This document shows, one piece after another, positions 153 to 4,439 of a stretch of DNA of 34,292 nt (its first letter is position 1; every line of letters begins with the position of its first letter). Position numbers and translations under genes: made by a program. Origin of the DNA: an uncultured Traorella sp. (GTDB lineage Bacteria; Bacillota_I; Bacilli_A; Erysipelotrichales; Erysipelotrichaceae); assembly GCA_944324265.1 (NCBI GenBank), contig CALUVS010000023.1, positions 1-34,292 on the forward strand, read 5' to 3'. The notes below the pieces were generated by a model, which did not search any database, was not told the DNA's origin, and worked only from the letters and a program-made list of their open reading frames with translations.

Positions 153-833
153 GCACTTTTCCTCCTGCTGTTCAAAAGCATGCATAAATGCTTTCAGCTC
201 TTTCATGTACAAATGTCCAATCACACTGACAACACCGCTCATCCCTGCCTGCATGCCTTCCAGCAAATAATCATCCTGACCGCTGTATATGAGAAAGTCT
301 TTGGTATTTGCCAAAACTTCTTTGACTTGATCCAAATCACGGCAGGCTTGCTTCAATGCAATGATATTAGGATAATCATTCGCTAATTGAATAATGGTTC
401 TGCTGGTCATTGCCACACCGCATCTTTTGGGAACATGATATAAAATAATTTTTTTGACTGTCTCTGCGGCTAAGGCAGAGAAATGTTCATACAAGCCATA
501 CTGTGTCGGCTGATTATAATATGGAGTTACGATCAAATATCCTTCAAAATCCATATCTTCCGTGATTTTCAACAAACGCATGCTTTCGCAGGTAGAAGCA
601 GTACCGATGCCAAAATAGATCTCTGCCCTCTTATCAGTTGCTGTGATGACATGTTCCAGCAAGGCTATCTTTTCATTTTCATTCAATGCAGAAGTTTCCG
701 CTGTAGTCCCGCAGACCATAAAACCATCACAGCCCTCATCAATCAATTTCTCAATCAATCGATCCAATGCAGTATAATCAATATCATTCATAATTGTAAA
801 AGGAGTAATCAAAGCCGTATAGCACTTATTCAT
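1..833 (-). CDS. dapA: 4-hydroxy-tetrahydrodipicolinate synthase, truncated and fused in frame to an ABC ATPase start
   Basis: Residues 1-227 are a DapA (dihydrodipicolinate synthase) TIM barrel, which condenses pyruvate with aspartate semialdehyde to HTPA. Visible landmarks are CGTTAET (Thr43-Thr44), TPYYNQP (Tyr105-Tyr106), VPKRCG (Arg137) and the Schiff-base lysine in IALKQA (Lys161). The start ATG overlaps the end of dpaB by 8 bp and has the ribosome site AAGGAGA. About 65 residues of the usual C-terminal part are missing. At codon 228 the frame continues without a stop into an ABC transporter ATPase N-terminus that runs off the window, and base composition changes there. HTPA is the direct substrate of the neighbouring dipicolinate synthase. 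The DapA identity is secure; whether the joined frame exists in a real genome is doubtful, and an assembly join at a contig end is the simplest explanation. Confidence 0.8.
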   Translation of the reverse strand, partial: MNKCYTALITPFTIMNDIDYTALDRLIEKLIDEGCDGFMVCGTTAETSALNENEKIALLEHVITATDKRAEIYFGIGTASTCESMRLLKITEDMDFEGYLIVTPYYNQPTQYGLYEHFSALAAETVKKIILYHVPKRCGVAMTSRTIIQLANDYPNIIALKQACRDLDQVKEVLANTKDFLIYSGQDDYLLEGMQAGMSGVVSVIGHLYMKELKAFMHAFEQQEEKCMTRLSAHGLSVGYNKKVLIGGIELEIDAGEVVTLIVPNGAGKSTVLKSIT

Positions 834-1404
834 ATTTTTTCTCCTTGATCACCGGCTGGATCTGTATATTCTGCAAAGCAAGCTGCAGTGTCTTTTCAAT
901 CATATCAAAACAAGCCACGCAGCTATTGGGTTTCTGTATATGATCATCTTGTTCAAAAGGAACAAAATAAAAGTTTTTGGTGTTATATAACTGGAATACA
1001 TTTTTGGAAGAAAGGCCTAATACATCATTGCTGGCCAGCGCAATCACAACATTTTTCTGATTGCGGATCATTGCTTTTGCTGCTAAAGCTACCGGGCAAT
1101 CATAGGCCCCATTGGCTAAACGAGACATAATATTGGCAGTCGCCGGCGCTATCAGCATGATATCATATTGATTCTGCGGGCCGATCAATTCTGCCTCAAC
1201 AATGCTTTGAATGATCTTCTTTGCAGAAATCTCTTCACAAGCTTTCAAAAAATCTTCCAGCTGAAAAAAGCGAGTCGATGAAGCAGCCGTATTTTTTGTC
1301 AGCACAAATTGTATTTCCATCGTTTCAGAAAGTTTCCGGCATTCTTCCAGCACTGCCTGATGATTGCAGAAAGAGCCGCTGATTCCAACTAAAAGCCTAA
1401 TCAT
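826..1404 (-). CDS. dpaB: Dipicolinate synthase subunit B (SpoVFB)
   Basis: This 192-residue flavoprotein-fold protein matches the B subunit of dipicolinate synthase, which with DpaA converts HTPA to dipicolinic acid in the mother cell during sporulation. The N-terminal nucleotide-binding stretch LVGISGSFCN (residues 4-13) and the central APATANIMSRLANGAYD segment are characteristic of SpoVFB and of the wider phosphopantothenoylcysteine decarboxylase-like flavoproteins. The length is normal for the family. The start codon overlaps the dpaA stop by 8 bp and the stop overlaps the dapA start, so all three are probably translationally coupled. The gene order dpaA-dpaB-dapA resembles the B. subtilis spoVFA-spoVFB-asd-dapG-dapA region, without asd and dapG. 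Confidence 0.92.
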   Translation of the reverse strand: MIRLLVGISGSFCNHQAVLEECRKLSETMEIQFVLTKNTAASSTRFFQLEDFLKACEEISAKKIIQSIVEAELIGPQNQYDIMLIAPATANIMSRLANGAYDCPVALAAKAMIRNQKNVVIALASNDVLGLSSKNVFQLYNTKNFYFVPFEQDDHIQKPNSCVACFDMIEKTLQLALQNIQIQPVIKEKKYE

Positions 1405-2161
1405 ACAAAACCTCCTGCAAAGTTTTCATCAATAAATTAGCTGCACTTAATGGAGATAATAAAGCCGGCAGCGGTCCTGCATGAACGATACGCACTTGTC
1501 TTGTTCTTAATAAAACTTCATTGATATCGGCATCTCCTACTAAATTGATGATCAGATTTTCATCCATTTTGCGGATCATATCCTCATCAATAATATTTGT
1601 TAAGGACGTATTGATGATCACATCAAACGGTTTCAATCGCTGATAATCTTCCACCGTCACAAAATTATCCTTTGCATCCTCCAAATGTCTTCGAATCACA
1701 CGTACCCGAACACCTAACAGCCGCAGCATATTGTAAATTGCTTTGCCGCTGGCTCCAAAGCCGATGAGATCGACCTTCAGATCAAACAATCCCTTTTGTG
1801 TATTATCCAAAAGCAAATATAAGACACCCTCTGCAGTCAAACGAGAATTTCCTAAAGTATAAGACTCCATCTGTGAAATATCTAATATTTTCCGATCATA
1901 GGTGACAAGCAGATCCGTGACATTGCCGCAGATAATCAGTCCGTCACGTTTGACCATCTGAATAAATTCATCTGCTATTGGAATACGCATTCCTTTCATC
2001 ATCATTGTCTTATCATTCCGAATGCCCGAAACAGGCAATATCAATATATCCAGATCAATATGGACCGGTTTTCCATCCTCAAGCAAAATACAATCTGCCG
2101 TATGTTTGAGCTGCTGGTATAAAAGAAAATTACGGCGATCACTATTACAAATCCCTATCAT
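1397..2161 (-). CDS. dpaA: Dipicolinate synthase subunit A (SpoVFA)
   Basis: This is the A subunit of dipicolinate synthase (254 residues from the start chosen here), an NAD(P)-dependent dehydrogenase-like protein. The Rossmann motif VDLIGFGASGKAIYNMLRLLG lies in the middle, followed by a basic RVIRRH stretch. The C-terminal segment GPLPALLSPLSAANLL is typical of the family. I chose the ATG at 2161 rather than one three codons upstream. The ribosome site AAAGG lies nine bases before it, whereas the upstream ATG overlaps that site. A sigma-K-like promoter lies directly upstream. The product, dipicolinate, is loaded into the spore core as the calcium salt. Confidence 0.9.
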   Translation of the reverse strand: MIGICNSDRRNFLLYQQLKHTADCILLEDGKPVHIDLDILILPVSGIRNDKTMMMKGMRIPIADEFIQMVKRDGLIICGNVTDLLVTYDRKILDISQMESYTLGNSRLTAEGVLYLLLDNTQKGLFDLKVDLIGFGASGKAIYNMLRLLGVRVRVIRRHLEDAKDNFVTVEDYQRLKPFDVIINTSLTNIIDEDMIRKMDENLIINLVGDADINEVLLRTRQVRIVHAGPLPALLSPLSAANLLMKTLQEVLYD

Positions 2162-2180
2162 CCAACACATCCTTTCAGAC

Positions 2181-2261: not shown

Positions 2262-2645
2262 TTATAACTGAGGAATTTCTTTCCCGCAATGAGAACAGTA
2301 GCGAGCCTCTTTGATGGTCTTTTTACCGCAATAAGGACAGAAAATCATATCGATGTTTTCTTGTGGTTTTTCTGTATTCCCATACTTTTCATTCAAAGGA
2401 TCTGTTTCTTCGCCGACATCCGTAATATCATAGACAGAATAACGATTTTTGCTTGTCGCATTTTTAAAATTATAAACAGCCTGTACAACTGCTATTACGA
2501 CAAAGACAACCCCAAACATACAGAAAAAGAAAGGAGCACCCATCGAAATTGCGGATAATGTCCAGAATACTCCGATCAATCCGATTACTATGCTCATAAA
2601 ACCGCCCATCATCGATGGACCGCGCCCAGGTTTGATACTTTTCAT
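2262..2645 (-). CDS. Small membrane protein with C-terminal zinc ribbon
   Basis: The function is unknown. The 127-residue protein has two predicted membrane helices (about residues 13-34 and 37-57), a polar linker, and a C-terminal zinc ribbon with two knuckles, CPYC (Cys103, Cys106) and CSHC (Cys117, Cys120). Proteins of this layout are common and uncharacterised in Firmicutes; the ribbon is expected to face the cytosol and bind one zinc ion. It has a strong ribosome site (GAGGAG, eight bases before ATG) and its own terminator, so it looks monocistronic. The IS110 element sits upstream, about 80 bases from the start codon, and may have separated the gene from part of its control region. Confidence 0.8.
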   Translation of the reverse strand: MKSIKPGRGPSMMGGFMSIVIGLIGVFWTLSAISMGAPFFFCMFGVVFVVIAVVQAVYNFKNATSKNRYSVYDITDVGEETDPLNEKYGNTEKPQENIDMIFCPYCGKKTIKEARYCSHCGKEIPQL

Positions 2646-2693
2646 AATATTCTCCTCGTATAATAGTTTTGTAAAGGAATTTCGCCTTTATAA

Positions 2694-2715
2694 ACATAGA
2701 TAAAATCATCTATGT
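2694..2715. repeat. 8-bp inverted repeat upstream of the zinc-ribbon gene
   Basis: ACATAGAT (2694-2701) and ATCTATGT (2708-2715) form a perfect inverted repeat with a 6-base gap. It lies about 50 bases upstream of the zinc-ribbon start and just outside the inferred IS110 left end. It could be an operator or a leader hairpin, and no regulator can be assigned. Confidence 0.5.
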
Positions 2716-2795
2716 AAACATTAAAGTCTTTATCCCGATATGATATCCCTGTAAATAAGGAATAATTCAATGGTCTACTCCTAATTCTCCTTGCC

Positions 2796-2985
2796 ATTCT
2801 GATTCTTGCGTGTCAGTTTAGTGCTTTATTAAGCCTGGAGCCCATTCATTCATCTTGTATTTCTAACTCAGAAGCTGCACATTGGTTTTCATCGTAGCAC
2901 TTGTTTCATGTGATGATTACCTTTAGTGCTCATAGCGAGGTTGATCATAGTGAATGATATCGGGATAATACGTTGCTTTATTTCT
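2796..2985 (+). ncRNA. Putative bridge RNA of the IS110 element
   Basis: The non-coding left end is strongly structured. There is a small 5' hairpin (CTGA with TCAG, about 2799-2816), a bulged stem (about 2832-2876), and two consecutive stem, internal-loop, hairpin units. Unit 1 has stem AGCACT/AGTGCT (2896-2901, 2925-2930). Unit 2 has stem AGCGA/TTGCT (2934-2938, 2973-2977). Both are capped by a TCAT/ATGA hairpin. In unit 2 the 3' arm (2957-2968) is exactly complementary over 12 bases to 2730-2741, the DNA next to the inferred left core. IS110 bridge RNAs are known to carry a donor-binding loop with this property. The RNA ends are approximate, and the target-binding loop is not resolved. Confidence 0.45.
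2941..2969 (+). promoter_or_regulatory. Possible transposase promoter
   Basis: TTGATC (2941-2946) and GATAAT (2964-2969) are separated by 17 bases and lie about 47 bases before the transposase ATG. The overlap with the putative donor loop means this may be coincidence. Confidence 0.3.
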
Positions 2986-3015
2986 TGAACATTTGACAGA
3001 AAGGAGGTTGATACC

Positions 3016-4305
3016 ATGAATACTACTTCTACACTGTGTGTTGGTATAGATGTTAGTCTTGATGCCAACCAGGTCTGTGCCATGAACTTTGATCAGCACA
3101 GATTCTTCAATAAGTCTTTCGAGAACTCTCTTGAAGGAACCAATCAACTGATAAAGGAAATTTCTCAGATCATGCTTTTTCATGGCTTTAATGCTGTGAC
3201 CTTTGCTATGGAAGCCACTTCTCTTTATTTCTTCCATGTTGCTAATTCTCTTTCAAATGCTGAAGAACTTCAGTTATTCCACGTTGAGGTCTATTGCCTC
3301 AATGCTAAGGTTGCCAAGAAATATAAGGAATCTTTTCTTGGCATGCCTAAGAATGATCCTCTTGATGCCTATAGCCTCTGCGATTTTGTCAGAGTTGGCA
3401 GGTCCAAGAAGCTCAATCAATGGTGCGGTGCCAATTACATAGCTCTCCAAAGAGTCACCAGATACCGCTACCACCTTGCTTTGCAGCTTACCAGAGAGAA
3501 GAACTATGTTTTGAATAACATCTATCTTAAGTTCTCTCAGCTTCGTAAAAAACAAGGCAAAACGGATTGTGAAAATCCTTTTTCTGATCTTTTCGGCGCC
3601 ACCTCATCAGCTATCCTTACGGACTTCGCTTCTATTGATGACATTATTTCTATGCCTATTGAAGACCTTGTCGAATATATTGATACGAAAGGTAAGCACC
3701 GTTTCTCTGATCCTAAGAAAGTCGCTACTTTGCTGCGGCAATGTGCTTTGAATTCATATCGCCTAGACAAAATTTCTTACGATGCCATCAATATCTCGAT
3801 TGCCTCAAGTCTGCGTATGATCAAGCTGATGGAAAAGGAAATCAAAGATCTTGATAAACAGATAGAGGACTTCGCTAAGGGCCTGCATTCGAATGCTTAT
3901 ACCGTTTTATTATCCATCCCTGGGATCGGCCCTGTTTTTGCCGCCGGTATTATTGCTGAGATAGGAAGCATTGACTGTTTCCCTAATCAGAATAAATTGG
4001 CAAAATATATCGGACTTGTCTGGGATGAACGCTCCAGCGGAAAACTGGTGTCTGAAGATAATAAACTGTTGATGACCGGTAACGCATACTTACGCTACTA
4101 CATCACTCAGGCTGCAAACAAATTCAAAGACCAAGATCCATACTATCATGAGTTTTATACACGCAAGTATAATCAAGCATTAACTCATAAACATAAAAGA
4201 GCACTCGTTTTAACATCTAGAAAATTCGTCAAGTTGATCTATGCACTGCTACGCAAAGAGCAACTTTACTCCGCCACAGGTGAAGTACTTCCCTTAACTG
4301 AATAA
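3016..4305 (+). CDS. IS110-family transposase (DEDD recombinase)
   Basis: This 429-residue transposase has an N-terminal RuvC-like DEDD domain. It shows VGIDVSLD (Asp12), FAMEATS for the Glu, and NDPLDAYSLCDF for the two Asp residues. A middle coiled region precedes the C-terminal Transposase_20 domain, with the helix-hairpin-helix-like SIPGIGPVFAAGIIAEIG and the serine-bearing ERSSGK ahead of TGNAYLRYYITQAA. The catalytic serine and DEDD residues all appear intact and there is no frameshift, so the copy may be active. The ribosome site AAGGAGG lies eight bases before the ATG. It is one of only two genes here on the plus strand. The family works with a bridge RNA encoded beside the gene. Confidence 0.93.
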   Translation: MNTTSTLCVGIDVSLDANQVCAMNFDQHRFFNKSFENSLEGTNQLIKEISQIMLFHGFNAVTFAMEATSLYFFHVANSLSNAEELQLFHVEVYCLNAKVAKKYKESFLGMPKNDPLDAYSLCDFVRVGRSKKLNQWCGANYIALQRVTRYRYHLALQLTREKNYVLNNIYLKFSQLRKKQGKTDCENPFSDLFGATSSAILTDFASIDDIISMPIEDLVEYIDTKGKHRFSDPKKVATLLRQCALNSYRLDKISYDAINISIASSLRMIKLMEKEIKDLDKQIEDFAKGLHSNAYTVLLSIPGIGPVFAAGIIAEIGSIDCFPNQNKLAKYIGLVWDERSSGKLVSEDNKLLMTGNAYLRYYITQAANKFKDQDPYYHEFYTRKYNQALTHKHKRALVLTSRKFVKLIYALLRKEQLYSATGEVLPLTE

Positions 4306-4310
4306 TCCTT

Positions 4311-4341
4311 AAAAAGTTCATTTTTTCTGAACTTCTTTTTA
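4311..4341 (+). terminator. Hairpin and T-run after the transposase
   Basis: AAGTTCA (4314-4320) pairs with TGAACTT (4328-4334) over a 7-base T-rich loop, followed by CTTTTTA. It lies 9 bases after the transposase stop, inside the element's right end. Confidence 0.65.
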
Positions 4342-4439
4342 GTGCGCCCTTTTTTTATCATCTCCTTACGATTTCCTCTGATTTATCTCTTGACATATTA
4401 CCAGAAGGCTTTATATTTATTGTAACACAATCCTATAAA

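What the first reader, a model, noticed from the sequence alone, without database searches (positions are those of the whole stretch)
2730..2968. IS110 left end encodes a bridge-RNA-like loop with 12-nt exact complementarity to its own terminus
In the non-coding left end, the 3' arm of a predicted internal loop (2957-2968, ATATCGGGATAA) is the exact reverse complement of 2730-2741 (TTATCCCGATAT), the first bases after the inferred CT core. In IS110 elements the right donor guide of the bridge RNA pairs with this part of the element. The match and its place make a previously undescribed bridge RNA likely. Complementarity with the right end is only weak (GAGG against AAGG), so the left donor guide is not settled.
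Basis: partly seen in the sequence, partly recalled or inferred. Interest (0 to 1): 0.8.

Follow-up and report, generated by a model that had tools for sequence, protein, structure and literature searches.

The report
Bridge RNA; reported match is stem
A jumping gene of the IS110 family carries the guide RNA that such elements use to choose where they land; the matching sequences first reported hold that RNA folded, and the real guides point the element at the ribosome-binding site in front of bacterial genes.

Summary
The 12-nt complementarity (2730-2741 with 2957-2968) is real, but it is not a donor guide pairing with the element's terminus. Multi-copy relatives and empty sites in sister species put the left end at 2655-2656 (CT|CGTATAAT), not near 2728, and the right end at 4409-4410. 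So 2730-2741 lies about 75 nt inside the element. In relatives the two arms change together (10 of 12 pairs show both-side changes) while the terminus stays CGTAT: they form a long-range RNA helix enclosing both guide loops. Likely guides: LTG 2784-2791, RTG 2827-2833, LDG 2869-2876, RDG 2932-2933 + 2936-2939. LTG, RTG and LDG co-vary with target and donor across relatives; the RDG has IS621's split layout. The RE-LE junction rebuilds TTGACA-17-TATAAT. The target guide reads CUCCU: 80 of 96 non-redundant insertions of this clade, the window copy included, sit beside a Shine-Dalgarno plus ATG of a divergent gene (control sites 14%). IS900 has a published target of the same form. Verdict: a new member of the known IS110/bridge-RNA kind, with an RNA explanation for Shine-Dalgarno targeting. 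No RNA was measured.

The parts
2643..2656 (-). Target site left half: start codon (CAT, minus strand) and Shine-Dalgarno of the gene at 2262-2645, reading CATAATATTCTC-CT on the plus strand
2655..2664 (+). Left end: CT core (2655-2656), right donor CGTAT (2657-2661), and -10 box TATAAT (2659-2664) of the circle-junction promoter
2671..2975 (+). Predicted bridge RNA (ends approximate): 5' stem-loops, closing helix, target loop, donor loop
   Evidence: folds and covariation; 5' end placed about 7 nt after the -10 box by inference
2730..2741 (+).
2784..2791 (+). Left target guide ATTCTCCT, identical to target 2649-2656
   Evidence: 84 elements: position -4 matches in 69 against 28.0 shuffled, 0 of 5000 shuffles
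2827..2833 (+). Right target guide TATTAAG, pairs with CTTTATA (core plus right flank 4411-4415) at 6 of 7 positions
   Evidence: 0 of 5000 shuffles for the sum of the last four variable positions
2869..2876 (+). Left donor guide CAGAAG plus CU, matches right end CAGAAGG|CT (4402-4410) with one donor base skipped
   Evidence: 7 distinct guide/donor pairs, 42 of 42 positions, 6 of 20000 shuffles
2932..2939 (+). Right donor guide in two pieces: AU (2932-2933) and CGAG (2936-2939), for donor CT|CG..AT (2655-2661)
   Evidence: conserved layout in A2; altered in the seven CGTAA elements
2957..2968 (+).
3016..4305 (+). IS110 transposase/recombinase, 429 aa; D12, E66, D114, D117 and S341 conserved
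4390..4410 (+). Right end: -35 box TTGACA (4390-4395), left donor, CT core (4409-4410)

Best explanation
The window holds one intact IS110-group element (about 2657-4410) whose left end encodes a bridge RNA. In the excised circle the joined ends form a consensus promoter (TTGACA-17 bp-TATAAT) that would transcribe the RNA. The RNA folds with 5' stem-loops and then a long closing helix (2730-2741 with 2957-2968) that encloses a target loop and a donor loop. The target loop's left guide (..CUCCU) and right guide (..AAG) select a Shine-Dalgarno site; the donor loop's guides select the element's own joined ends. The recombinase then inserts the circle at the CT core, at the upstream edge of the Shine-Dalgarno, leaving AGGAG and the start codon of the neighbouring gene in place. 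Shown by sequence comparison: ends, helix, guide-target and guide-donor covariation (weakest for the RDG), target context. Inferred from IS621: transcription, RNA-protein binding, circle formation and the catalytic steps.
For: Ends from multi-copy relatives and empty sites; helix found without prompting and supported by both-side changes and by own-versus-swapped arms; LTG-target match; LDG-donor and RTG-target match; split RDG conserved; junction promoter with 17-bp spacing in 97 of 97 elements; Shine-Dalgarno context in 80 of 96 insertions; one copy inserted exactly in another copy's LTG (L096); catalytic residues present.
Against: No RNA has been measured and no transposition seen; the element is single copy in its genome and no empty site for this copy was found. 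The RDG cannot be tested well because the right donor hardly varies. One RTG position and one LDG position do not pair in the window. Rfam has no matching family. Twelve of 96 insertions did not show the Shine-Dalgarno plus start codon arrangement.
Confidence: 0.9

Rival explanations
1. One reading: 2957-2968 is the right donor guide and pairs with the element's first bases at 2730-2741.
For: The 12-nt match is exact and uncommon by chance.
Against: The left end is at 2655, so 2730 is internal. The 2957-2968 arm varies with 2730-2741 and not with the terminus, which is CGTAT in 91 of 98 elements. A conserved AU..CGAG fits the true terminus better.
Confidence: 0.02
2. The left end is only a structured leader of the transposase mRNA (a regulatory fold), not a guide RNA; the helix serves expression control.
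For: The structure lies directly upstream of the transposase start, and in the circle the same promoter would read through both.
Against: A leader has no reason to match host flanks that are not inherited with the element; LTG and RTG do. The LDG matches the far right end. A dual role is not excluded.
Confidence: 0.05
3. The Shine-Dalgarno bias reflects survival, not guidance: insertions elsewhere are harmful and were lost, while those that keep the ribosome-binding site survive.
For: Most insertions keep AGGAG next to the gene (78 of 96), so harm may be small.
Against: Where the target departs from CTCCT the guide often departs with it (for example L004, L079, L084, L086, L109), and one copy sits inside another copy's guide (L096). 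Survival alone does not explain base-by-base matching.
Confidence: 0.05

Closest known systems
IS621 and its bridge RNA (IS110 group; PMC11208160, PMC11208158)
   Same: Recombinase with the same catalytic residues, long left end with the RNA, CT core, promoter rebuilt at the circle junction, target loop before donor loop, left guides pairing with the bottom strand and right guides with the top strand, split right donor guide.
   Different: Recombinase 429 aa against 326-328 aa and distant in sequence; a long-range helix encloses both loops, which the cited text on IS621 does not describe; target is the Shine-Dalgarno motif instead of REP elements; one donor base is skipped in the left donor pairing.
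IS900 of Mycobacterium avium subsp. paratuberculosis (IS110 family; PMC8141618, citing Doran et al. 1997)
   Same: Published target motif CATGNNNNNNTCTCCTT, i.e. start codon, spacer and Shine-Dalgarno on the complementary strand, the same form as the sites found here.
   Different: IS900 is an actinobacterial element; its bridge RNA and guides were not examined here, and relatedness to this clade was not tested.
ISEc21 seekRNA (IS110 type; PMC11187229)
   Same: Transposase-bound RNA from the long non-coding region upstream of the transposase gene, matching both strands of the target.
   Different: Described there with short RNA forms; whether the RNA here is processed is unknown.

Membership tests
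IS110 group of insertion sequences | DEDD RuvC-like domain plus Transposase_20 domain with catalytic serine | tested here: met
   PF01548 and PF02371 above cutoff; D12, E66, D114, D117, S341 invariant; S341 falls on IS621 S241 by profile coordinates
IS110 group of insertion sequences | Long non-coding left end, short right end, CT core at both ends, no long terminal or subterminal inverted repeats | tested here: met
   Left end 361 nt, right end about 105 nt, CT at 2655-2656 and 4409-4410; no inverted repeat joining the two ends
IS110 group of insertion sequences | Circular intermediate whose joined ends form a promoter | tested here: inconclusive
   Promoter TTGACA-17-TATAAT is rebuilt in silico, 17-bp spacing in 97 of 97 elements; the circle itself cannot be observed here
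IS110 bridge RNA | Conserved structured RNA in the left end | tested here: met
   expression not measured
IS110 bridge RNA | Target loop guides matching left and right target including the core | tested here: met
IS110 bridge RNA | Donor loop guides matching the element's own joined ends | tested here: met
   LDG by covariation; RDG by conserved layout and limited co-change only
IS110 bridge RNA | RNA bound by the recombinase and needed for recombination | not testable with these tools
   Needs experiment
   Terminus is at 2655; the arm co-varies with 2730-2741 instead
IS1111 group | 7-17 bp subterminal inverted repeats and the RNA in the right end | tested here: not met
   No such repeat between the ends; the long non-coding end and the RNA are on the left

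The most novel reading that the evidence does not exclude
A large clade of Bacillota IS110 elements carries bridge RNAs whose target guide is fixed on the Shine-Dalgarno motif. The elements therefore have a landing site in front of very many genes in their hosts and leave the ribosome-binding site working after insertion, and their two loops are held in one closed RNA domain by a long-range helix not described for IS621. The same guide logic would explain the published target of IS900.
Probability: 0.6. Interest if true: 0.55.

Novelty: new member of a known kind. Interest (0 to 1): 0.42.

Why it matters
It corrects a plausible misreading (a structural helix taken for a guide) and supplies full guide assignments for an IS110 clade at 36-59% amino-acid identity to the window element. 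It ties a long-known target preference (IS900 and translation start signals) to a testable RNA guide. Elements that aim at Shine-Dalgarno sequences could rewire the expression of many genes, and the natural guide/target pairs are a useful data set for bridge-RNA rules.

Tried and rejected
Single-protein scans of genome and viral contigs found nothing; the alignment-based scans worked. Rfam: no match. Genomes of the window's own genus align only to about window 1440-1840, so they give no empty site for this copy. RNAalifold also proposed CCUUGC (LTG region) pairing with GCGAGG (RDG region); its columns hardly vary and the two sides hold the core and its complement, so it is not taken as evidence. 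More distant IS110s (25-28% identity) end CCT|GGTATATT and are less strictly placed at Shine-Dalgarno sites. Searches of the held library for Shine-Dalgarno targeting by bridge-RNA elements found nothing; the IS900 precedent came from a search by name. No structure prediction was run: the recombinase matches solved IS621 and ISCro4 structures by sequence.

Full report
Observation. The complementarity exists as stated: 2730-2741 and 2957-2968 are exact reverse complements, 15 nt with one mismatch when extended. Only 8 of 1000 dinucleotide shuffles of the 361-nt left end hold an exact inverted repeat of 12 nt or more.

The element. 3016-4305 encodes an intact 429-aa IS110 transposase. Across relatives D12, E66, D114, D117 and S341 are invariant, and the profile stretch that matches IS621 (profile 259-401 to chain 171-313) places the serine on IS621 S241. 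The element is single copy in its genome, so its ends had to come from relatives. 107 related loci were fetched by alignment-based scans, besides copies found in whole genomes.

The ends. Copies of one element in each of three genomes (G472, G414, G543) lose similarity at the same motifs: left CT|CGTATAAT and right TTGAC(14 nt)CT. About 100 loci show these motifs. In the window each occurs once: 2652-2665 on the left (core CT 2655-2656) and 4390-4410 on the right (core CT 4409-4410). For two insertions in relatives, sister species have the uninterrupted site, aligned straight through the CTCCTT stretch.

What the 12-nt match is. An alignment of 28 left ends gave, without prompting, a long-range helix at the place of these two arms. 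Counting that helix: 87.7% of cells paired against 70.7 +/- 1.4 in shuffles; 56 cells changed on both sides against 16.4; 10 of 12 pairs with both-side changes; sliding the partner by 1-3 columns drops pairing to 31-51%. Independently, each element's own arms form better duplexes than swapped arms (mean -26.9 against -17.6 kcal/mol; 0 of 5000 permutations as low). In A2 the window's own 5' arm is shifted by about six columns, so this evidence comes from its relatives; the window contributes its 12 exact pairs. Meanwhile the terminus CGTAT is the same in 91 of 98 elements. The arms follow each other, not the terminus: the match is a structural helix.

The real guides. By the IS621 rules (left guides equal the top strand, right guides are the reverse complement, both including the core; PMC11208160 and PMC11208158), the window reads: LTG ATTCTCCT 2784-2791, identical to the 8 bases up to and including the core at 2649-2656; RTG TATTAAG 2827-2833, 6 of 7 pairs with CTTTATA; LDG CAGAAG-CU 2869-2876 against CAGAAGG|CT at the right end, one donor base skipped; RDG AU 2932-2933 plus CGAG 2936-2939 against CT|CG and AT of the left end, the split layout described for IS621. 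The LTG test uses host flanks, which are not inherited with the element: matches at position -4 in 69 of 84 against 28.0 in shuffles and at -5 in 52 against 26.1, each 0 of 5000. LDG: seven distinct guide/donor pairs, 42 of 42 positions when one donor base may be skipped, 6 of 20,000 shuffles; RTG: 0 of 5000. RDG: the AU is kept with donor CGTAT and is altered or displaced in the seven elements with CGTAA, which is only suggestive, because those seven belong to one clade.

Promoter. Joining right and left ends gives TTGACA-17 bp-TATAAT in the window, 17-bp spacing in all 97 elements tested, and both boxes perfect in 70. This is the circle-junction promoter arrangement reported for IS621.

Target. 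In 80 of 96 non-redundant insertions an ATG reading frame of at least 30 codons (or a shorter one, at least 20 codons, running off the contig) starts 4-16 nt from the core on the far side, against 14% of control CTC[CT] sites with a slightly stricter rule; 70 lie at 10-12 nt when rarer start codons are included. So the element inserts at Shine-Dalgarno sequences of divergent genes. Here that gene is 2262-2645 on the minus strand, a small zinc-ribbon protein. AGGAG stays next to the gene in 78 of 96 cases. Where targets deviate (for example CACCCCT, CCCCCT, ACACCT), guides often deviate with them. In L096 one copy is inserted exactly in the LTG of another copy, as expected if that stretch is what is recognised.

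Known or new. IS110 bridge RNAs are known and were predicted in 85.7% of ISfinder IS110s. Shine-Dalgarno targeting has a precedent in IS900, target motif CATGNNNNNNTCTCCTT. New here, as far as the held library shows, are the guide assignments for this Bacillota clade, the RNA explanation for its Shine-Dalgarno preference, and the closing helix. Whether any published bridge-RNA model already has such a helix could not be checked, because figures are not held.

Limits. No RNA was measured; the RNA ends are approximate; the ends of the window copy rest on relatives; the RDG is supported mainly by layout and conservation.

Noticed in passing
L096, inner left end about 195 nt inside an outer left end: A copy is inserted exactly at the LTG core of another copy of the same element: the guide's own DNA is a target.
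   Followed up: partly
Left flanks of about 96 relatives; window 2643-2656: Clade-wide insertion at Shine-Dalgarno sequences of divergent genes, keeping AGGAG and the start codon.
   Followed up: yes
L048, L062, L094 left flanks: Left flanks reading ACAGGAA(G/TA) instead of a Shine-Dalgarno complement, shared by unrelated contigs; may be another kind of site or an assembly of joined copies.
   Followed up: no
L009, L010, L016, L022, L174-L177: More distant IS110s (25-28% identity) end CCT|GGTATATT; some sit at Shine-Dalgarno-like sites, others do not.
   Followed up: partly
L111, left end: Two left-end motifs 19 nt apart in tandem, probably remnant of repeated insertion and excision.
   Followed up: no
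window 826-2170, minus strand: Adjacent genes: a flavoprotein (PF02441) and a protein with weak, below-cutoff matches to the dipicolinate synthase A N-terminal and 2-hydroxyacid dehydrogenase domains; the order resembles dpaA/dpaB of spore formers.
   Followed up: no
L003 (G012) and L006 (G111): Close relatives with stop codons inside the transposase frame, i.e. decayed copies.
   Followed up: no
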